From NCBI GenBank assembly GCA_001275005.1, contig JWZX01002948.1, positions 1 to 39,106 on the forward strand: a stretch of 39,106 bases of DNA. Direction: 5' to 3'. Positions 6,058 through 31,625 of the stretch are shown here, piece after piece (positions within the stretch are counted from its first letter, which is position 1; each line of letters starts with the position of its first letter). The stretch comes from Chrysochromulina tobinii. Taxonomy: Eukaryota > Haptophyta > Prymnesiales > Chrysochromulinaceae. The notes under the pieces were generated by a model. It was given only the letters and a program-made list of their open reading frames with translations, was not told the origin of the DNA and did not search any database. Made by a program: the position numbers and the translations under genes.

Positions 6058-7911
6058 TCACTCGTCGCCCGTCCACTCACGGTCATGCGAGGGCTGCCTC
6101 TCGCCCCTTGCGCTTACATGTAGTCCGCTGCACGACGCCCGCGAGCACAGCGGACTCAAGTCGCGCTGAGTTGAGCGCTCGTTCGGGCTGCCGCCCATGA
6201 ATCCCGAGATGGACTCTGACCGGAATCCTGAGATGGACTCTGACCGGAATCCCGAGATGCACTCTGACCGGAAGATCGTGGGTCGGTTAGGCGAGGGGGT
6301 GCCCGCACGCGGCGCGCGCTCCCGAGCGGCCACCTGGTTGGGCAGCCCAAAGGCGGGCGGCGCGAGCGCGGGCGGTGGTTCTCGGCCGTCAAGGCTCGCC
6401 GAGATTGCACCGAGATTGCACCGAGATTGCGGTGGTTCTCGGCCGTCAAGGCTCGCGTGCCTCGCAGGGACAGGTCCAGGCACTGTCGGGGAGCCGTGGA
6501 ATTCGGCCAGCCGTTGGGAGAACGGTCCACCGATGCTGCTCACCACGGCGCTGCTCCCGCCGCGGCTCTCGACGCTCAAGAGACTATCTGAGGCTCGCGA
6601 ACCACGCGCCGCCAAGCGCCGTCGCGGCACGGGAGTGAGCGCACCAGGCACTTCGCCCATCCCCGCGAGTAGGGCAGCTGGGTGCATGGGGAGCAGTGCA
6701 GGGTGCGGGCGCGGCGGGTGCTCGGCGCTCGGGCTGCTCGGCACGGCGCTCGGGCTGCTCGGCACGGCGCTCGGACTGCTCGGCACGGCGCCGTGCCGGT
6801 AGGACGCCGTCGGTGCCCAACTCGGCGCTGAGGCGGTTGGACTGATCAGCACCGGAGGCGAGTGGGGATCCCTGTGGGGATCTTCCCCGTGGGGATCCCT
6901 GTGGGGATCTTCCCTGTGGGGATCCCTGTGGGGATCTTCCCTGTGGGGATCCCTGTGGGGATCTTCCCTGTGGGGATCCCTGTGGGGATCTCCCGAGCCA
7001 GCAGCGGTGGCGGTGACCGCGGCCGCCTCTGCGCAGTACTCGCCCTCATCGACACCGCTCATGCGCTCCCCGCTCGACGAGGCACCACAGCAGCCGGCGG
7101 ACGCGGGGCAGCATGCGGGCGTGGCGGTACCGGCGCGGGTGGCGGCGGCGGTGCGGTACAAGGGGCCATGAGCGGCGCCCATCACAGCGCCATCGCCGCC
7201 GCCCATCGTACCGGTATGGCTCTCCCATCGTACCGGTATGGCGCTGTGATGGGCGCCGCTGATGGCCAGATGGCGCTGCAGCATGCCCGGCCGGCCACAA
7301 AGCAGCATCTGCGACACGGGCGAGAGGCGCTCGTTGTCTGATGGGCTGCGTCGCCACGGCTCGCTCACATACTCGCAGCGCGTGGCCTCGTCCATCGCAG
7401 GCGAGGCGAGTCCCGACGGCATGCCAGAGGTCGAGCCGCGAGTTGCCAAGTCCGCGTCGACGGACAAGTTGCCGGGGGAATCGACGCGCGGCCAGGGGCT
7501 CGCTCGCAGCCGCTTCGGCTCGTGCTGCGTCGCGTCCGACGCCGAGACACCGAGCCGCTGGAAGGTGTTGACCAGTGCTGAGGGCGGCGGACGCTCGAAG
7601 CCCTCCTCTCCCCAGCCGTGGCCGAGCAGCGGCGAGATCTCGTCCGACGGCGTGCGCACAGCCCCGGAGGGCGAAGGCACACCCGAGCCGATGAAGTCGT
7701 CAGGATGCCGTCGCTTCAGGTGGTGTTGTGGCGGCACGAAAAGAGGAGGCGGACGGTGCTGGTCATCGTCGCTCACGGAGTCGTGCACGGCGCCGCCAAC
7801 GCTGAAAGGTCGCGGAAGCGGTACGCGGGCAAGATTGCCCCGGCAGATAGCAACAGGCTGCGCGATGGGTCTGTTACAGGCTCGCTCATGACTGGGCCAT
7901 TGTCCTTCCAT
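6058..7911 (-). CDS. S/P-rich repeat-containing hypothetical protein
   Basis: A minus frame of 617 codons from a candidate ATG at 7911 to TGA at 6058-6060. The frame stays open to 8208 but without a convincing start. An intron ending at a TTTCAG near 7802 is also possible, so the 5' end is uncertain. The product is low-complexity and rich in Ser, Pro, Arg and Gly. Better-looking parts are HHLKRRHPDDFIGSGVPSP and TPSDEISPLLGHGW, like phospho-regulated linkers. In-frame tandem repeats include REDPHRDPH (27-nt unit), AVPSSPS (21-nt unit) and FRSESISG (24-nt unit). It also contains a 28-bp direct duplication around a short insert and a 22-bp perfect inverted repeat, both listed separately. I recognise no domain. 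It could be a disordered regulatory protein, or partly non-coding. Confidence 0.45.
   Translation of the reverse strand: MEGQWPSHERACNRPIAQPVAICRGNLARVPLPRPFSVGGAVHDSVSDDDQHRPPPLFVPPQHHLKRRHPDDFIGSGVPSPSGAVRTPSDEISPLLGHGWGEEGFERPPPSALVNTFQRLGVSASDATQHEPKRLRASPWPRVDSPGNLSVDADLATRGSTSGMPSGLASPAMDEATRCEYVSEPWRRSPSDNERLSPVSQMLLCGRPGMLQRHLAISGAHHSAIPVRWESHTGTMGGGDGAVMGAAHGPLYRTAAATRAGTATPACCPASAGCCGASSSGERMSGVDEGEYCAEAAAVTATAAGSGDPHRDPHREDPHRDPHREDPHRDPHREDPHRDPHGEDPHRDPHSPPVLISPTASAPSWAPTASYRHGAVPSSPSAVPSSPSAVPSSPSAEHPPRPHPALLPMHPAALLAGMGEVPGALTPVPRRRLAARGSRASDSLLSVESRGGSSAVVSSIGGPFSQRLAEFHGSPTVPGPVPARHASLDGREPPQSRCNLGAISASLDGREPPPALAPPAFGLPNQVAARERAPRAGTPSPNRPTIFRSECISGFRSESISGFRSESISGFMGGSPNERSTQRDLSPLCSRASCSGLHVSARGERQPSHDREWTGDE
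6200..6271. repeat. 24-bp tandem repeat, 3 copies
   Basis: Three copies of a 24-bp unit beginning aatcccgagatg and containing ctctgaccgg. On the minus strand they encode FRSESISG-type repeats near the C-terminus of the S/P-rich frame. The length keeps the reading frame. Confidence 0.8.
6372..6456. repeat. 28-bp direct duplication flanking an 11-mer insert
   Basis: A perfect 28-bp duplication (6372-6399 and 6429-6456) flanks 29 bp. On the minus strand those 29 bp are repeats of GCAATCTCGGT. The spacing between copies is 57 bp, so the reading frame is kept and the protein shows ASLDGREPP twice. The geometry is the same as at the introner-type introns of the FAM91 and armadillo genes, but the insert ends without a splice signal. 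Confidence 0.75.
6727..6789. repeat. 21-bp tandem repeat, 3 copies
   Basis: Three near-perfect copies of a 21-bp unit built on gctcgggctgctcggcacg. They encode AVPSSPS repeats on the minus strand and are a multiple of three long. Confidence 0.8.
6860..6992. repeat. 27-bp minisatellite containing GGATCC/GGATCT
   Basis: About five copies of a 27-bp unit made of gtggggatccct plus gtggggatcttccct. On the minus strand it encodes repeats of REDPHRDPH. The unit is nearly homogeneous, which suggests recent expansion or ongoing slippage. Confidence 0.85.
7171..7260. repeat. 22-bp perfect inverted repeat around a tandem core
   Basis: The arm 7171-7192 (agcggcgcccatcacagcgc plus ca) is perfectly complementary to 7239-7260. 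The 46-bp loop holds two direct copies of catcgtaccggtatgg, each carrying the palindrome taccggta. As single-stranded DNA or RNA it would form a strong hairpin. It lies inside the S/P-rich minus frame. Confidence 0.85.
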
Positions 7912-18800: not shown

Positions 18801-21800
18801 ATGCCCAAGCCAGAGCCTGCTTTCTCGACGACAGACGCGCAGCGCTTGACGACGTGCCTCGACGGCATCGCGGACGACGCCAGTGAGTTGCGCTGGGCCG
18901 CGCTCGATCAGCTCCGCTACTTTTGCGACGGCGCCAATGCGGCGCTGCTCGAGGCCATCGGCGGCAAGCGCTTCCCGACGCTCGCGGTGCTAGTCGAGCT
19001 GCTCGACACGGCCGCGCGGCTCGGCGGGCCCATCGCGGTGCGCAAATGCGTCGACGTTCGACAGCGCGTGCCTGTCGGCCTCGTCGTCCAGCTGCTCGAG
19101 TGCCTGCTGTGCAATGCGACGTCCAACCTGAAGCCGTTTCTCAAGATGCCCAACGGCATCAAGAACCTCGTGACCACGCTCTCGCACTACGAGGACCTCA
19201 TCTACGACGCGGAAGGCCCCGACATCCTCGACCGCGCGTGCAACGTGCTCTCCTACTGTACCTTTTACCACCCTGCGAGCGCTGCCTCCATCTTCATCGC
19301 CGCCGACGGCGTCGCGGTCGTGACGCGCATGCTCAATGCGGCCATCACGCACTACACGCGCACGCTCGCGCGGCCCGGCACCGCGCTCCCCTCGCGACCA
19401 ATGCCTCTCTCCGGCTCGTCCGCGCAATGGGACTCGCTCACGGGCAACATCTGCGAGCTCGTCTCGAATGTCTCGTCGGCAAACAGTCAAGCCCAGAAGG
19501 CCTTCACGCAGGGCGGCGCCTTGCGCTCGCTGATCGACCTGGTGCCCTTGCTCACGACGACGCGCTCGATGACCGTCGCCCAGGGGCAGCCCTCGCTGAC
19601 GTTCGCCACCGAGCAGGTGCTCCTCGCCGCGGCAACGCTCGTCTGGTGCACGCCGCAGTCGCAGACCATGCTCCTCGAGGCGGGGACCATCGTAAGCGCC
19701 TTGGCCCCGCCGCGCCCTCACCCGCCGCCGCGCCCGAATGCCCCACGCGCCCCACCGCTGGTCTCCGCCTTGAGCTCTTTCATCTCCGCCTTGAGCTCTT
19801 TCATCTCCGCCTTGAGCTCTTTCTTCTCCGCCCCCTCCCGCCCCCAGGACGCATGCCTCAAGTACATCGACCAGTCGGCCGCGGCAAGCGCGCCCGCAAG
19901 CAGCAACCTGGACAATGGCGAGGCGCACCACGAGGCGCACCCCACCCCGGACACGATCGTGTCGCAGGCGTGCCTTCTCCTCGTGCTCAACAGCCAGCTC
20001 GAGAACAAGCCGATGCAGTCCTCGGTGCTCCAACGTGCTGAGAAGGTGAGCTCGCGGGCCGCCAAGGCGGGCCACACGCACGAGCTGCGCAGCGAGTTGG
20101 CCGCGCTCTACACGCTGCACCAGGAGATGTTCGAGGCGATCGAGCACATCCGGCTCAACCATTACCACAGTGACGAAGTGGTCAAGAGCCTCAAGCTCCT
20201 CGCTCGCTCGCTCCCTTCGAAGGGGGAGGCACCCTACCTACTCGTGCACATGCACGGGACCCAGACGCTCGAGCTCATGATCCGCTGCGTGTCCAACATT
20301 GACGAGGAGGTGCTCTCGCATGCGTGCCTCGCGTGCCTGCAGCGCTGCATGCAAGTGCTCACCACGACGCCTCGCCTCCTTCCCCACAGGTGCTCTCGCA
20401 TGCGTGCCTCGCGTGCCACGCGCTCATACAGCGCTCGCCGCCCGCGCGCATCCTCTTCCTTCGCAAGCAAGGCATCGCTGAGCTCGCCGAGTGCTTGCGC
20501 GACTACAACACCGACGTCAAGGCCACCTCGCTGCGCATCCTATGCCTGCTCGCGGCCGAGTCGGCGCACGCGCGTGACGAGATGCGCACCGAGGAGGTGC
20601 TGCTGCAGGTGCTGCGCACTATCCAAGCGTACCCAGCCGACGACGTGACCTTGCCAGTGCTCGACGCAGCGCTCGAGGCGGTCGCACACATCGTGCTGTC
20701 CTCGCGCACCAACCAGGACTACATCCGCTCGGTGGCGGGGCTCGAGCCGCTCGCTACGGCGCTCAAGCACTGCGTCGCCTCCCTCCCTCGCCACTCGCCG
20801 CCAGCGCACACGACGCGCGGCGCCGACGGCTTCGACGGGATGGGCGGCAACATGGGGGCTGCCCATGGCGGCGCGGCCATGGGCAGCGCCGGCATGGGCG
20901 CGCGGCGTGGGCGCGCGGGCATTCACGGCACTCCGACGCGCGTTGAGCCAGCGGCCACGTGCGGGGCCCCGTCGGCGGTCACGGCCGCGCAATCGCGGCC
21001 GACCACCGCGGGCCGCTCACGCCCGACCACCGCGGGGCGCGTGCGCGGCGAGAGGGCATCGGACGAGATCTCGGGCCCGGACGGTCGCTCCGCTCGCACG
21101 ACGACGGCGGTGGCGCCCAGCGGCGCGATCGACCTGTGGAAAGTGACCGAGACGGCGTGCGACGCGCTCAACAACGTGGCGTACCGTAACGTCGGCAACC
21201 AGGAGGCGCTGCTCGAGCTTGGGGTGCTCCCGGCTTGCCTCTCGCTGCTGGCGCGCCACGAGAGCGGCGATGGCGGCGAGGGCGTGGGTGCGTCGCTCGC
21301 CGCGGGAGCGCTCAACCTGCTCATCAACATGGCCGACACCAACAGCGCCACTCAGGACGCCCTCGGCTCGCGTGAGGCTGCCGAGGCGGTCCATCGGCTG
21401 CTCAGTGCGACGGGCGCGCCCCGGATCGTGTGCGCCGCGTGCCTGCTGCTCTCGCACGTCGCGTGGAACCATCCGACCAACCAACGTCTGTATGGGACCG
21501 AGGCCGCCATTCGCACCCTCCTCTCCCTCCTCTCGGCCGAAGGCCGGGCTGCGGCCCTGGGGCAGAAGAGGGCGGATGCCGCCGCCGCTGAGGGGCTCGC
21601 GGCCGTGGAAGGGCTTGCCCCGGGCTCGGCCGAGGGCGGCGCGGAAGCGGTGGGCCAAGCGGTCGAGCTCGCCCTCTACGCGATGATGGCGCTCGTCAAC
21701 CTGTCGTACTGCAACGCGACGGTGCAGGAGCTCGTGCGCGCGTGCGGCGGTGTGCCGCTGCTGCACCAGCAGCTGGCGAGCCCTCTGTACGAGGCGCGCA

Positions 21801-23263
21801 AGACGGCCGCCTTCTGCCTGGGCAACCTGGTGCGCGATAACTCCGCGAACGCGCGCGACGAACGTGATTGCATGCTGATTGCATGCTGATTGCATGCTGA
21901 TTGCATGAATGAGGATTGCCTCCCTCATCAGGTGCGCGATAACTCCGCGAACGCGCGCGACGTTGTCTTGCACGGCGGCATCGAGTCGCTGCTCTACTGC
22001 CTCAACGACGACGACGACGACGAGCTCTCGAAGACGGCCTACTCGACGATCCTGCACTTGGGCGACTCGGGCGTACAGCAGCTCCTCCACTTGAGCCGCG
22101 ACGCCGCCAAGCAGCTCGCCGATCTCCATGCGCGCACGCCGGATCTCAAGGCCGCGCTTGCGGCGGCCATGGCTGCGGACGAGGACGAGGACGAGGACGA
22201 GGAGGACGAGACGGACGAGGCGGCGGCTGGCGCGCCCGGCATCGGCGGTGCGCGCGCCGGCACGCCCTCCACGGCCAGCGGCGCGGCCAGTGGCGCCCGG
22301 GACGGCGCCGACAAGCTTCTCATGGAAGACATCGAGGATGACATTGAGACCCTCTCGCTCAATAGTTTGATCGCTCGGCACGCGCCCGCGCCCGCCACGT
22401 CACAGCATCAGCAGCAGCATCATGAGCAGCAGCAGCATCAGCCGACTCGCCGCCCCGCCTCGGCGGCCGTCGGCGGCGGCTCCTTCTTCGCGGCGCGCGC
22501 TGAGGGCGGAGGTACCGGTACCAGTGGCGCCCGGGACGGCGCCGCCTCCACCGCGTTGCGGCCGTCGACTGGGCGCCGGGGTGGTGCGGCGGCCGCGGCG
22601 GGCGCGGGTGCCCTCTCGTCAGTGCCGACGGAGACGTTGGTCACGTGCCGTACGGCGATCGCGCTCCTCGAGCGCTGCCTGCCTGTGCTCAACGGCACAG
22701 TTTACACGGCCGAGGCCCATCAGCGCGCGTTGCTCACTGAGCACGGGATGGACTGCCTGCTGCCGCTCCTCTGTGACGCCGTGCCCTTCAACCTGCAGGA
22801 GCAGGCGCTCTACGTGCTACTGAACGCGACCTCGCTCAAGGATGGCAAGGCGCTGTCGCTCGCGTGCCGACACGGCGCGGTCGGCGCGATCCTCGCGGTG
22901 GCGGCCGTGGCGCACGGCATCAAGCACGAGGACGCGCTTGGGAAGTGTCTCTCGGTGCTTGAGCACCTCGTAGAGGGCAGCCGGGAGGGGCGCGAGAAGT
23001 TCTGTGCGACCGAAGATGGCACCAAGCTCCTCATGACCATCCTTCAGGTGGGTGATGTGCAGGCGCTCAATCCTGAGGTGCGCACGGGCTCGGCGAACCT
23101 GCTCCTCGCGCTGGTCTCCGCCGAGCCCTCGCAGAAGGCTGTGCTCAGGCTGGGTGGCCGGCGGGTGCTCGAGCAGATCGCCCTTTGGGACACGAAGCGG
23201 CGCGACACCATGGTCCTCGCCGCGCGCGCCAAGCAGGCGCTGCGCGAGCTGACAGAGTCGTGA
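18801..23263 (+). CDS. Armadillo/HEAT-repeat scaffold protein, four exons
   Basis: Exons 18801-19691, 19848-20309, 20390-21829 and 21932-23263 are all multiples of three and join in phase 0 to 1374 residues, with no internal stop. ATG 18801 (MPKPEPAFSTTDAQRLTTCL) to TGA 23261-23263. The protein is mostly helical repeats of armadillo style: LLECLLCNATSNLKPFLK, DACLKYIDQ, ALNNVAYRNVGNQEALLELG, LNLLINMADTNSATQDALGS, MALVNLSYCNATVQELV, FCLGNLVRDNSANARDVVLH. An acidic run (DEDEDEDEEDETDE) and a Gln/His-rich linker divide the last third. I cannot name the family. Armadillo scaffolds usually bind other proteins, and one ciliary group (ARMC-type) is possible. Two of the three introns are introner-like insertions with perfect flanking exon duplications. 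Confidence 0.85.
19692..19847 (+). other. Intron with 21-bp minisatellite (156 nt, frame-preserving)
   Basis: Donor GTAAGC after GGGACCATC and acceptor CGCCCCCAG before GACGCATGC, phase 0. The interior is C-rich and contains three copies of ctccgccttgagctctttc(a/t)t. The length is a multiple of three and it has no in-frame stop, so retention would add 52 residues rather than truncate. No flanking duplication is seen, unlike the next two introns. Retained coding sequence is the alternative. Confidence 0.7.
20310..20389 (+). mobile_element. Introner-like insertion, core family, 28-bp target duplication
   Basis: Intron of 80 nt, phase 0 (DEE|VLSHACLAC). The exon stretch gtgctctcgcatgcgtgcct continues for 28 bp and is perfectly repeated at 20310-20337 and 20390-20417. 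The 52-bp insert 20338-20389 carries gctgcatgcaagtgctcacc, then a C/T-rich tract and CACAG. Near-identical inserts occur in three FAM91 introns. The donor GT belongs to the left exon copy, while the acceptor belongs to the insert. Confidence 0.85.
21830..21931 (+). mobile_element. Introner-like insertion, decamer family, 31-bp target duplication
   Basis: Intron of 102 nt, phase 0 (LGNL|VRDNSANARD). A perfect 31-bp exon duplication (21830-21860 and 21932-21962) flanks 71 bp made of gattgcatgct repeats followed by gaggattgcctccctcatcag. The repeat holds CTGAT, a branch-point-like motif, and the insert supplies the terminal CAG. The left copy supplies the donor. The perfect copies suggest a very recent event. 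Confidence 0.85.
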
Positions 23264-27952: not shown

Positions 27953-30900
27953 ATGGCACTGCCTCGCGCTCTCGCCGAGTGCCTCGAGGCGGCGGCGGAC
28001 GCGGACCCCCCCGACTGGCGCTGGGGTTTGCTTCCAGAGGCCGTGCGCGCATCCATCAGCGAAGGAGAGTGGCAGCGGGCGGCTCGTGCACACAGCCTTG
28101 GCGTGCAGGGGCCGTGGTCCACTGCGCTGGGAGGCGACGAGGCCTCGTACCTCGAAGAGCTGCTTCGCAAAAGCCGTGAGAAGTGCATGCTCTACCCGTA
28201 CCACCTCGCGGATGCGCTCGGCCGAAACCCGCGCCTCCCCACCATCACGCCCTTTGATTACTACCAAGAGATGCTCATCGAGACGATGCGCGCCGAGAAA
28301 TCGTTTGACACAATCCCCAACTTCACAGCGGCCGACTGCGGGCGCCTGGTAGGCGTGGGGCGCAACGAGTTCTTGCACGCCCTCAACCAGTGCCGCAGCA
28401 AGGGCTGGCTGTGGAAGCGTCGACGCGCCATCATCGCTAGCTCGCTGCCGGCGGCGGCGGCGCTGCCTACGATGCCGGTGCTGCACTGGTGGCAGGTGCA
28501 CCTGACCAAGGCGGCGCACAAGCTGCTCGCGCAGCGAGCCGCAGCGCGCGCGCAAGGCGCCGCGCGCCAGGAATCGCTCCGGTCGTCCATCGGCGAGCGC
28601 ATCAGCCAAGCTCTCAAGGAGGCCCGAGAGGCCGCGGCTGCCCACCACGGCGCCTCCGGGGCCGCCGCCGCTGTGAATGGCGCCGTGTTGGGCACCGCGA
28701 CCGGAGGGCCCGTCCCGCCGCCCACCACGGCGCTCCACGCAGCCAGCAATGACGGGGACGAGCTCGGCGCCGACGGGGCTGACGAAGAGGGCGCCGCGGT
28801 GGGCGGCAGCAAGGACGTCGCGGGGCCGCATGGCTTGTCCGCGGAGCAGTTGAGCGTGCTCGGAGCGATCGAGGTGGCAAGGGGCGCTCCGAACCGGATG
28901 ATTGCCTCTGATTGCCACTGATGGTCTCCCTCATTGCATGCGGCTGGCAGGCGGCGCTCTGCCCGTACCGGCGCTGCATGCAAGTGCTCACCACGACGCC
29001 TCGCCTCCTTCCCCACAGGTGGCAGGGGGCGCTCTGCCCGCTGGCGAGCTGCCGCGCGACGCGCTGCCCGCTCTGTACTCGCTCGGGTTGGTGCGCTACG
29101 ATGTGCCCGTCGCCGCGTGCGATCGGATCGCGGTGCCGCCACTCAAGGGCTTCGTCATGAATCGCGTCGGGCATGACTACCTCGAAAAGATGCTGTACGA
29201 GGTCTTCGTGTCCAACGACGAGGCCATGACCGTTGGGGAGGTAGCGTCGATGCTGGGCCACTCGCTGCATGCAAGTGCTCACCACGACGCCATACCTCCT
29301 TCCCCACAGGTGGCGTCGCTGCTGGGCCAGCCACTCCCTCGCATCCTGCGCGCCGTCTCGATCGCGTGCTTGCTTGGCTTCGCTGTCAAGCTCACCGCGC
29401 CGCCGCTCAGCTCGCCGCCGCCTCCCCGGCCGACGGCAGCCACGACGGCGAGCACACCCGCTGGGTCAGAGAATGGAGCGGAGCCAAAGCCGCTGGCGGA
29501 GCCAGCGTGGCATGCCTCGTGGCATCACCTTGCGGAAGGCGGGGGCGCCTGCAAATCTCGGGCACATATCGCGGAAGGCGGAGGCGCCACGCCTGACCCG
29601 GCGGCTGCGGGCGATGGCGCTGCGGCGGGCGCGCCCAGGACGGCGCCGGAAGCTCCGGCGGATGAAGGTACGCGCACGGCGAGCGAGGCTGCGCCGCCGC
29701 TGCAGCGCATCGGCCTGCTCGTCGATTCGAAGCTGGCGGCGTGCCTCATGATGTCCAATTTGGCTGACGGGCTCAAGCAGCACGCGGTCACGCTGTATGA
29801 GGTGGGCAAGATCCCCAACGCCTCTGATGGCCTCTGATTGCCTCTAATTGCCTCTGATTGCCTCCCTCTTCACAGGTGGGCAAGATCCCCAACGAGGCAC
29901 TCGACGCCTTCCTCGCAGCCACAGAGAAGGTGGAGCGACCGCAGATCTCCTCCGATGGCCATTGATTGCCTCTGATGGCCTCTGATGGCCTCCCTCCTCA
30001 CAGGTGGAGCGACCGCAGATCCACGAAGCTGATCTCCTCGAGTACTTTGACCAGGCGATCGCGCTGCGGCACGCCCTCCTCTTCCTGCGCAGCGACCCAG
30101 CGTGTGCGATCAACGGCAGTCTGCGGCCCCTCGACATCGTGCGCACCTGATTGCCACTGATTGCCACTGATTGCCACTGATTGCCACTGATTGCCACTGA
30201 TAGCCACTGATAGCCACTGATAGCCACTGAGCGGCCCCTCGACATCGTGCGCACCGAGTCACTCGCTCCAGTGCCCGAGCGACTCCTCAGCATGCAGGGG
30301 CTCATTACGGCGCCATCTCCCCAATGCCCCACAGGTGCGCACCGAGTCACTCGCCACCCTCGATGGCGCCACGCGCGCGCGCGTGCTGCAGCGCCAGTAC
30401 GCGCTGCTCGTCTCGATGGCGCCGATGGAGCCCCTCTGCGAACACGTGTACACCGCCGGGCTGCCGGTGATGCACTTCGGGCCCACATTCTCGCTCCTCA
30501 CCTCGCCGTGGCTCCAGCTCGCGCTCTATACGACGCTCGGCTGCGGCCCGCCCTCGATCCTGCTGCCACGTGGCGCTCGGCTCCGGCGCGTGCCGGAAGG
30601 GTTGCGACCGTATTCACACCTCCTCCTCACACCCTGGGGCGGGGAGCCCGCCGTGACCTCCACGTCACACCTGCTCTCGGTCGCCGCCGAGCTCCTCACG
30701 CGCGCCCCTCTACTGGTGCAAGCCTACGTGGCCGACGCCAGCGCCGGCACGGCCAGGCTGCCCATGCCGGTCGCCGCCGACGCCGCCGAGACGCCGAAGG
30801 CAGCTACCAATCTCGGACAGAATCTCGGGCATAATCTCGGGCGGATCGCCGACGCCGCCGAGACGCCGCGGCTCGAGTCGCCGCCCGCCGCCACGCCCTC

Positions 30901-31625
30901 GCCGGCCATGCCCACAGGCGAGGGCAGCACACGCACCGACACCGAGGCCGAGGGCGCTCACGAGGACGCTCACGAGGGCGCCCATGACGGCGCTCACGAG
31001 GGCGCCCATGACGGCGCTCACGAGGGCGCCCATGACGGCGCTCACGAGGGCGCTCACGAGGACGCGAGCCGAGCGGGCGGCGGCGAGGGTCCTCATGCCG
31101 CCGCTCGACGCGTCATGCACGCCCTCGGCCTCGAATCGTCTATAGGGATGCTCCAGCTGGTCCGTGTGCAGGCGGCGGCGGACGCGGGAGGGCCGCCTAG
31201 CACGGCGTGGGTGCCCCTCATGTTGCACTTCGGTCTGCCACTCTGCGACGTGCCCACGTGCGAGGCGGTGTGCGAGCAGGTGCGGCAGCGACTACTCTTC
31301 AGTGCGAGCCGTACCGGCGCTGCATGCAAGTGCTCACCACGACGCCTCGCCTCCTTCCCCGCAGGTGCGGCAGCGACAGCTCTTCAGTGCGAGCCAGCTG
31401 CAGGCCCACACAGACGCAGTGCGCGCGCTGCTGCGGCGCGTGCGCGCCTTCGTGCACGAGTACACAGGCATCGAGGCGGAAGCTGCGGGCAGGGGCATGG
31501 AGACCGCGACCGCGGAGGAGAGCGACGTGACGCTTGCCGACTCGGCCGAGAGCGTCACGTACCCGTGCGTACCGCTCTTCTTCGACGGCCGCTGCATGCA
31601 AGTGCTCGCCGAAGCGGCGAGGTGA
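27953..31625 (+). CDS. FAM91A1: FAM91 homologue (WDR11-complex subunit), seven exons
   Basis: Exons 27953-28873, 29019-29240, 29310-29801, 29876-29929, 30004-30138, 30335-31279 and 31365-31625 are all multiples of three and joined in phase 0 to 1009 residues. Recognition is firm: ASYLEELLRKSREKCMLYPY, SFDTIPNFTAADCGRLVGVG, KIPNEALDAFLAATEK, YFDQAIALRHALLFLRSD, RVLQRQYALLVSMAPMEP and WVPLMLHFGLPLCDVPTC match FAM91 in order. In animals FAM91A1 works with WDR11 and C17orf75 and bridges to TBC1D23 when endosome-derived vesicles are captured by trans-Golgi golgins. Lineage-specific inserts include GAHEGAHD repeats in exon 6. The C-terminus after FFDG (RCMQVLAEAAR, stop at 31623-31625) differs from the family tail and overlaps a possible donor GAG|GTGAGG, so a further exon is possible. 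All six introns are introner-like. Confidence 0.93.
28874..29018 (+). mobile_element. Intron with two successive introner-like insertions
   Basis: 145 nt, phase 0 (GAIE|VAGGALPAG). Three related target copies are present: 28874 gtggcaaggggcgctcc, 28944-28965 ctggcaggcggcgctctgcc, and the exonic 29019-29040 gtggcagggggcgctctgcc. Between copies 1 and 2 lies a decamer-type insert (gattgcctctgattgccact, then ccctcattgca). Between 2 and 3 lies a core-family insert ending CCCCACAG at 29018. The outermost GT is used, since the frame would be broken otherwise. Confidence 0.8.
29241..29309 (+). mobile_element. Introner-like insertion, core family, 20-bp duplication (18/20)
   Basis: 69 nt, phase 0 (VGE|VASLLGQ). 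The left copy gtagcgtcgatgctgggcca (29241-29260) differs from the exonic gtggcgtcgctgctgggcca (29310-29329) at two positions. The insert 29261-29309 is the gctgcatgcaagtgctcacc core. The length is a multiple of three without in-frame stops, so retention would insert 23 residues. Confidence 0.83.
29802..29875 (+). mobile_element. Introner-like insertion, decamer family, 19-bp duplication
   Basis: 74 nt, phase 0 (LYE|VGKIPNEA). A perfect duplication gtgggcaagatccccaacg lies at 29802-29820 and 29876-29894. The 55-bp insert is cctctgatgg / cctctgattg type decamers ending cctccctcttcacag. Confidence 0.88.
29930..30003 (+). mobile_element. Introner-like insertion, decamer family, 18-bp duplication
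   Basis: 74 nt, phase 0 (TEK|VERPQIHE). A perfect duplication gtggagcgaccgcagatc lies at 29930-29947 and 30004-30021. The 56-bp insert holds tgatggcc/tgattgcc decamers and ends cctccctcctcacag, closely matching the insert only 54 exon bases upstream. The two introns isolate an 18-codon exon. Confidence 0.88.
30139..30334 (+). mobile_element. Intron enlarged by a second, nested insertion
   Basis: 196 nt, phase 0 (LDI|VRTESLATL). Inner event: gtgcgcaccgagtcactcgc perfectly repeated at 30247-30266 and 30335-30354 around 68 bp ending ccccacag. Outer event: a perfect 25-bp repeat (30123-30147 and 30231-30255, gcggcccctcgacatcgtgc plus gcacc) around 83 bp that are exactly (tgattgccac)5(tgatagccac)3tga. 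The outer duplication copied the existing donor GTGCGC, and only use of the upstream copy keeps the frame open. This moves the intron's 5' end 108 bp upstream. Confidence 0.87.
30775..30868. repeat. 22-bp direct duplication flanking AATCTCGG repeats inside exon
   Basis: The stretch cgccgacgccgccgagacgc plus cg is repeated at 30775-30796 and 30847-30868. The 50-bp insert has three spaced aatctcgg units. The offset is 72 bp, frame-preserving, and the protein shows ADAAETP twice with NLGQNLGHNLG between. AATCTCGG repeats also fill the insert at 6400-6428. No splice sites are present. Confidence 0.75.
30951..31063. repeat. 24-bp minisatellite (GAHEGAHD)
   Basis: About four and a half copies of gcgctcacgagggcgcccatgac-like units within FAM91 exon 6, encoding GAHEGAHD repeats in frame. 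It probably lies in a disordered, lineage-specific loop. Confidence 0.85.
31280..31364 (+). mobile_element. Introner-like insertion, core family, 31-bp duplication (29/31)
   Basis: 85 nt, phase 0 (VCEQ|VRQRQLFSASQL). The left copy 31280-31310 and exonic copy 31365-31395 start gtgcggcagcgac and end cttcagtgcgagcc, with two differences between. The 54-bp insert starts gtaccggcgctgcatgcaag, shared with the copy at 28965, and ends ccccgcag. Confidence 0.87.

What the first reader, a model, noticed from the sequence alone, without database searches (positions are those of the whole stretch)
28874..31364. Six introns of one gene each lie between long duplications of the host exon
All six FAM91 introns are bordered by direct repeats of the adjoining exon sequence (18, 19, 20, 20+25, 22 and 31 bp), one copy inside the intron at its 5' end and one in the downstream exon. 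The same holds for two introns of the armadillo gene (28 and 31 bp, perfect). Introner-like elements that multiply introns are known (Micromonas, Aureococcus and others), and short target duplications have been described for some. Duplications of 18-31 bp with variable length do not fit a cut-and-paste transposase with a fixed stagger. They suggest staggered break repair, target-primed copying or template switching. This may be an undescribed intron-birth mechanism.
Basis: partly seen in the sequence, partly recalled or inferred. Interest (0 to 1): 0.95.

Follow-up and report, generated by a model that had tools for sequence, protein, structure and literature searches.

The report
Introns born inside long exon duplications
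In this alga (probably a haptophyte), new introns seem to arise when a short copy of the end of an existing intron is pasted into an exon while about 28 bases of the exon are duplicated, and close relatives of the alga still lack two of these introns.

Summary
Confirmed and extended. All six FAM91 introns and two of three introns of an armadillo gene lie between direct repeats of exon sequence (18-35 bp). Removing them gives intact conserved proteins. Two close relatives (97% and 94% protein identity) have uninterrupted frames with one copy of the repeat at both armadillo sites, so these two introns are recent gains. The inserts belong to large families: 620 copies of family A, 2,914 of family B, in 53 Mb. 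In family A, 38 of 64 testable copies have a significant duplication, 14-45 bp, mean 28; in family B 26 of 54, 8-45 bp. No inverted ends were found. The 5' end of the insert varies, shows microhomology, and in some copies carries part of a donor locus's own duplicated exon. So the 3' parts of existing introns are being copied. Best reading: such copies are patched into staggered breaks (or target-primed nicks), and spliceable insertions survive. Printed duplications that I saw for introners and Daphnia are 3-12 bp. Enzyme and template (RNA or DNA) are unproven. New variant of a known kind.

The parts
27953..31625 (+). FAM91 gene, seven exons, 1009-aa product
   Evidence: ATG and TGA checked
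28874..29018 (+). FAM91 intron 1: two insertions (family B-like, then family A); duplications 28872-28889/29017-29034 (18 bp, 1 mismatch) and 28945-28965/29020-29040 (21 bp, 1 mismatch)
29241..29309 (+). FAM91 intron 2, family A insert; duplication 29239-29260/29308-29329 (22 bp, 2 mismatches)
29802..29875 (+). FAM91 intron 3, family B insert; duplication 29800-29820/29874-29894 (21 bp)
   Evidence: P0001 reads into the same insertion
29930..30003 (+). FAM91 intron 4, family B insert; duplication 29928-29947/30002-30021 (20 bp)
30139..30334 (+). FAM91 intron 5: first insertion with duplication 30247-30266/30335-30354 (20 bp); later insertion of 83 bp (30148-30230) with duplication 30123-30147/30231-30255 (25 bp) that copies the exon end and the 5' splice site
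   Evidence: the downstream donor would leave a TGA in frame
31280..31364 (+). FAM91 intron 6, family A insert; duplication 31276-31310/31361-31395 (35 bp, 2 mismatches)
18801..23263 (+). Armadillo-type gene, 1374-aa product after removal of three inferred introns
20310..20389 (+). Armadillo intron, family A insert; duplication 20308-20337/20388-20417 (30 bp perfect); absent in P0018 and P0019
21830..21931 (+). Armadillo intron, family B-like insert; duplication 21829-21860/21931-21962 (32 bp perfect); absent in P0018 and P0019
30775..30868 (+). In-frame coding insertion in FAM91: 22-bp perfect duplication (30775-30796/30847-30868) around 50 bp of AATCTCGGGCA-like repeats, net 72 bp
6372..6456 (-). 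Similar insertion: 28-bp perfect duplication around 29 bp, net 57 bp, inside a minus-strand ORF not shown to be a gene

Best explanation
These are young introns made by insertion. Two breaks or nicks on opposite strands of an exon, about 28 bp apart (14-46), open the site. A target end anneals by a few bases to another intron (its DNA or its RNA) and a polymerase copies that intron's 3' part: branch site, pyrimidine tract, AG. The copy is joined to the other end, and filling in the stagger leaves two copies of the exon stretch. Insertions survive in exons when the first exon copy offers a GT and the insert an AG, or the insert a GT and the second exon copy an AG, because splicing then restores the old message; others survive if they stay in frame. 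Each new intron can be a donor in turn. Shown: insertion layout with target duplication, empty sites at two introns, membership in repeated families, donor exon pieces carried along in some copies, 5'-junction microhomology. Inferred: the staggered break, the polymerase, the template, and that splicing occurs.
For: Window repeats against 0 in 30 shuffles, and family A duplications significant in 38 of 64 copies, 14-45 bp from the GT, mean 27.9, SD 8.4. Families of 620 and 2,914 copies with reversed control 0. Uninterrupted frames and a single repeat copy at both armadillo sites in P0018 and P0019; P0019 lies on a 28,187-base contig and starts with M at an internal GTG, the mark of an intron-blind gene call. 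Microhomology at the 5' junction 2.89 against 0.47, 0 of 5,000 resamplings. Donor exon pieces in other copies' inserts: L028 from L036 (21-bp match), window introns 1 and 6 and L026 from L013 (16 bp). Splice sites recruited from either side. Same layout with a non-intron insert kept in frame inside FAM91. Plain tandem duplications are common too: 43 in 139 kb of unselected sequence. Staggered breaks are known to give such duplications (PMC8355091, PMC5730883, passages).
Against: No enzyme, no RNA reads, no observed event. Family A duplications end in C at 29 of 38 sites, a site preference that random breaks would not give, though family B shows none (12 of 45). 26 of 64 family A and 28 of 54 family B copies have no significant duplication; some of these are decayed or out of reach of the test, but that is not shown for all. 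Family B has several short duplications of 8-13 bp, against a sharp lower limit.
Confidence: 0.55

Rival explanations
1. Target-primed reverse transcription: a LINE-type enzyme nicks the exon, reverse-transcribes excised intron RNA from its 3' AG end, and nicks the other strand about 28 bp away. The introns are then very short non-autonomous retroelements.
For: Variable duplication length with a mode, constant 3' end at the intron AG in spliceable copies, variable 5' end with microhomology; 26 reverse-transcriptase domain matches in the genome, 22 over the cut-off; C preference at one nick in family A.
Against: Inserts kept unspliced do not end at the AG (L037, L059, L061 twice, L071), L015 holds a permuted copy, and family B inserts at L016:2884 and L045:764 begin at the intron's GT and lack its 3' end. 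Whether the reverse transcriptases are LINEs was not tested, and no shared tail is known.
Confidence: 0.27
2. Replication template switching (microhomology-driven): the nascent strand jumps to another intron, copies it, and returns about 28 bases upstream.
For: 5'-junction microhomology, same-contig clustering of like copies, mixed inserts such as L021:1343.
Against: It does not predict a preferred return distance; family A has no duplication of 9-13 bp among 38. Insertions with target loss were not searched for, so their absence is not shown.
Confidence: 0.12
3. Cut-and-paste DNA transposon (MITE-type introner).
For: High copy number on both strands.
Against: No inverted ends: longest end-to-end complement 3.55 bases in 58 family A inserts against 3.63 shuffled, 4.16 against 3.58 in 45 family B inserts. 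Duplication length is not fixed.
Confidence: 0.03
4. Plain tandem duplication of an exon stretch with AGGT, or reverse splicing of an intron RNA.
For: AGGT or GGT starts many of the duplications; plain tandem duplications occur.
Against: The middle of each intron is a member of a foreign family, not exon; reverse splicing would leave no duplication (recalled).
Confidence: 0.02
5. Assembly artefact.
For: Fragmented genome, 2,253 contigs.
Against: Many loci with diverged repeat copies; an independent contig (P0001) reads into the intron 3 insertion at the same codon.
Confidence: 0.01

Closest known systems
Introners (PMC9860276, passages seen)
   Same: Families of near-identical introns at unrelated places; splice sites partly recruited from the target duplication; described in marine protists, including Chrysochromulina.
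   Different: There TSDs of 3-9 bp (4 bp in the Chrysochromulina example) and often inverted ends; here mostly 14-46 bp, no inverted ends, no fixed 5' end, donor exon pieces carried along.
Daphnia new introns from staggered double-strand breaks (PMC4202315, passages seen)
   Same: Repeat of the adjoining exon at the other end of the new intron; nested later insertions; empty alleles.
   Different: Repeats of 4-12 bp and fillers of mostly unknown source; here longer repeats and inserts from high-copy intron families.
Amoebophrya introners (PMC7789003, passages seen)
   Same: Repeated introns that spread in a marine protist.
   Different: 3-5 nt direct repeats, 8-20 nt inverted repeats, non-canonical splice sites.
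Tandem duplications at staggered breaks in mouse and human cells (PMC8355091, PMC5730883, passages seen)
   Same: Breaks with overhangs (43 bp in one design) leave duplications tens of bases long; polymerase theta products use microhomology and occasionally carry templated inserts.
   Different: Induced breaks, mostly without foreign inserts, no introns.
Direct repeats near introns, survey (PMC11782384, abstract seen)
   Same: Direct repeats at intron borders, 4-30 bp.
   Different: Mean 11.4 bp over all classes of introns; no mobile families, no empty sites.

Membership tests
Introner (intron-generating repeated family) | Highly similar introns at many non-homologous positions | tested here: met
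   620 and 2,914 pattern copies; aligned inserts in unrelated flanks. That each is an intron is inferred.
Introner (intron-generating repeated family) | Insertion creates the intron (empty site in a relative) | tested here: met
   At 2 of 2 armadillo sites with repeats, in P0018 and P0019, by protein frame only; FAM91 sites undecided.
Introner (intron-generating repeated family) | Splicing shown by RNA | not testable with these tools
   No reads; only frame restoration.
Cut-and-paste DNA transposon introner | Terminal inverted repeats | tested here: not met
   family A 3.55 against 3.63 shuffled; family B 4.16 against 3.58.
Cut-and-paste DNA transposon introner | Fixed short TSD | tested here: not met
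   14-45 bp in 38 family A copies, 8-45 bp in 26 family B copies.
LINE/SINE-type retroelement | Variable-length TSD | tested here: met
LINE/SINE-type retroelement | Shared 3' tail and a reverse-transcriptase partner | tested here: inconclusive
   22 reverse-transcriptase matches over cut-off; type and tails not examined; 3' ends vary in unspliced copies.
Daphnia-type staggered-break intron | Direct repeat of adjoining exon | tested here: met
   longer than the printed 4-12 bp.
Tandem genomic duplication (AGGT) intron | Intron consists of duplicated exon only | tested here: not met
   Inserts of about 20-90 bp from other families lie between the copies.

The most novel reading that the evidence does not exclude
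In this alga any existing intron can act as template: introns multiply as bare 3' splice-site modules (branch site, pyrimidine tract, AG) patched into staggered breaks of exons, with no transposon ends and no transposase of their own, so that intron number grows by a self-feeding repair process.
Probability: 0.35. Interest if true: 0.92.

Novelty: new variant of a known kind. Interest (0 to 1): 0.8.

Why it matters
How introns are born is an old open question with few recent, datable cases. Here a compact genome holds thousands of candidate copies, many with identical duplicated ends (37 of 75 family A rows), and relatives with empty sites. Duplication length, junction homology and donor identity can be measured on a large scale, so repair, target-primed and template-switch models become directly testable.

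Tried and rejected
Allele test: contigs C101 and C235 looked like haplotypes with an indel. They are 99.87% identical over the longest match, and the only internal indel of 5 bp or more is a 72-bp length change in a 12-base repeat array, so they gave no presence/absence case. Contig C949 holds a decayed copy of about 650 bp of the armadillo region with the intron already in it. Taxon by 18S: the RF01960 search did not complete; 'haptophyte' rests on Emiliania huxleyi being the nearest named FAM91 relative. P0001 as an empty-site case for FAM91 introns 1 and 2: it is uninterrupted there but reads into intron 3, and its 2,055-base contig may be a transcript, so it was not counted. In-frame counts: of 36 family A rows without an exact GT-AG fit, 18 have a net length divisible by three, but several of these are GC-AG or indel-decayed introns or arrays, so only single cases are cited; L015 and L059 could also be spliced with a GC donor. 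The first microhomology figure (4.96) was inflated by tandem arrays and is replaced by that. An 18-base match between family A and the last FAM91 exon was considered as the family's origin and left open.

Rows dropped: one search removed rows whose repeat contained the element, rows whose insert lacked a core string, and duplicates (85 to 75); one search kept 64 family A copies, those with a recognisable acceptor and enough flank, one per acceptor sequence; one search used 64 of the 75 family A rows, and 45 family B rows with a repeat of at least 16 bp free of family B motifs; one search dropped 9 of 28 rows as arrays, and two or three of the 19 left may still be arrays.
Full report
What was checked. 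The window is contig C1789 of an unnamed 53.15-Mb genome in 2,253 contigs. The nearest named FAM91 relative is from Emiliania huxleyi, so the organism is probably a haptophyte; the 18S search did not complete. Five GT..AG pairs with at least 15 identical bases after both sites occur in the window, and none in any of 30 shuffles.

They behave as introns. Removing them gives a 1009-aa FAM91 protein with both Pfam domains and a 1374-aa armadillo-type protein. At I2-I6 the spliced FAM91 protein is collinear with P0002-P0004, on contigs of 2.8-3.3 kb; at I1 it is 1-3 residues shorter than they are. Unspliced, the second armadillo site has a stop and the first a frame change. Splicing itself was not observed.

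Two are recent. P0018 (97% identical, 5,788-base contig) and P0019 (94%, 28,187-base contig) run without interruption, with one copy of the repeated stretch, through both armadillo sites. P0019 begins with M at a codon that is an internal GTG in the window and V in P0018, the mark of an intron-blind bacterial-type gene call on genomic DNA; so the introns are absent there, not removed. This is inference from protein records; their DNA was not seen. P0001 (92% identical to FAM91 in the alignment) reads through the intron 3 duplication and into its insert (GKIPNASDGF; the window's own frame there reads GKIPNASDGL and then a stop), so that insertion is older than the split from that relative.

They belong to big families. 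Family A core: 297 + 323 copies with up to 3 mismatches, reversed control 0. Family B 3' end: 1,411 + 1,503 copies with up to 2 mismatches, control 0. Of 104 family A copies in the loci then held, 85 had a flanking direct repeat by a permissive score. The stricter anchored test found 38 of 64 significant, 14-45 bp from the GT, mean 27.9, SD 8.4, none of 9-13 bp. Family B: 26 of 54 significant, 8-45 bp, mean 22.7, six of them under 14 bp; with a 16-bp floor, 45 rows average 27.1.

Anatomy. Family A copies share (C)GCTGCATGCAAGTGCTCACCACGRCGCC, a pyrimidine tract and CACAG. I read GTGCTCAC as the branch site (recalled consensus, no call). Inverted ends are not above shuffles in family A and barely so in family B. 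The 5' part differs from copy to copy. In some copies it is a piece of another locus's duplicated exon: L028 from L036 (21-bp match), window introns 1 and 6 and L026 from L013 (16 bp). Thus the copied unit looks like the 3' part of whatever intron served as donor, not a bounded element. At the 5' junction, 19 non-array inserts that start inside the core show 2.89 bases of microhomology on average against 0.47 expected. Family A duplications end in C at 29 of 38 sites, seen after the fact; family B at 12 of 45. Copies cluster: 11 same-contig pairs among 58 copies with 0-1 mismatch, null means 1.0-1.5; the null used simulated contig lengths, and six of the pairs are in this contig, from which the search pattern came.

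Splice sites come from either side. Of 71 intron-like exact fits (of 119 fits, filtered for pyrimidine content and repeat length), 50 use the start of the duplication, 10 the end and 11 the middle. At L016:2884 and L045:764 the insert brings the GT and the second exon copy the AG. Intron 5 of FAM91 shows an order of events: a second insertion duplicated 25 bp spanning the exon end and the 5' splice site of the first, and the upstream copy must now be used, since the downstream one would leave a TGA in frame.

The same layout without splicing. Inside FAM91 a 22-bp perfect repeat surrounds 50 bp of AATCTCGGGCA-like repeats, net 72 bp in frame. Similar cases in open frames: L015, L037 (antisense to the frame), L059, L061; coding status there is not proven and L061 may be a pseudogene. 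Plain tandem duplications of 12-59 bp number 43 in 139 kb of unselected sequence. So duplication of short stretches is common here, and the introns may be the insertions that splicing makes harmless.

Mechanism. Best: copying of intron 3' ends into staggered breaks with fill-in of the stagger, 0.55. Main rival: target-primed reverse transcription of intron RNA, 0.27. They share most predictions. Decisive data are the 3' ends of antisense or intergenic copies and the ends of the reverse-transcriptase elements (26 domain matches, 22 over the cut-off).

Relation to print. In the listings, and in the passages that I opened, I saw no report of intron families with duplications of this length; only open-licence papers are held and most listed papers were not opened. 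Introner duplications are given as 3-9 bp, with 4 bp in a Chrysochromulina example (PMC9860276, passages); Daphnia 4-12 bp (PMC4202315, passages); Amoebophrya 3-5 nt (PMC7789003, passages); a survey gives 4-30 bp, mean 11.4 (PMC11782384, abstract). Intron-gain routes are reviewed in PMC3443670 (passages). Mirusvirus introners (PMC12768974, passages) carry no duplication data there. Tandem duplications from staggered breaks: PMC8355091 and PMC5730883 (passages); a rice study with the same idea was seen only as summarised in PMC7407515 (passages).

Noticed in passing
window 31590-31607: The last FAM91 exon shares 18 bases (CGCTGCATGCAAGTGCTC) with the family A core, and aligns with the homologues' C-terminus, so it may be native; possible origin of the family or chance reuse.
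   Followed up: partly
L021:1459-1660, L038:1493-1740, L052:480-760: Tandem arrays in which duplication plus insert are repeated two or three times, lengthening the intron.
   Followed up: partly
L015:1459-1530: A family A insert in permuted order (intron 3' end, a short stretch, then the core) inside a 24-bp duplication in a long open frame.
   Followed up: partly
L049/L050 (C101) and L051 (C235): Two nearly identical contigs that differ by 72 bp in a 12-base repeat array; probably haplotypes or a recent duplication.
   Followed up: yes
L072:4272-4890 (C949): Decayed copy of an armadillo-gene segment, 87% identical, with its family A intron.
   Followed up: partly
window 22287-22310 and 22521-22544: A perfect 24-bp repeat (CCAGTGGCGCCCGGGACGGCGCCG) 234 bp apart, in frame in the armadillo gene.
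   Followed up: no
L050:72, L021:1300, L062:366: Duplicated-end insertions that fit exact splicing only with a GC donor (the last by eye), so GC-AG introns may be common in this genome.
   Followed up: partly
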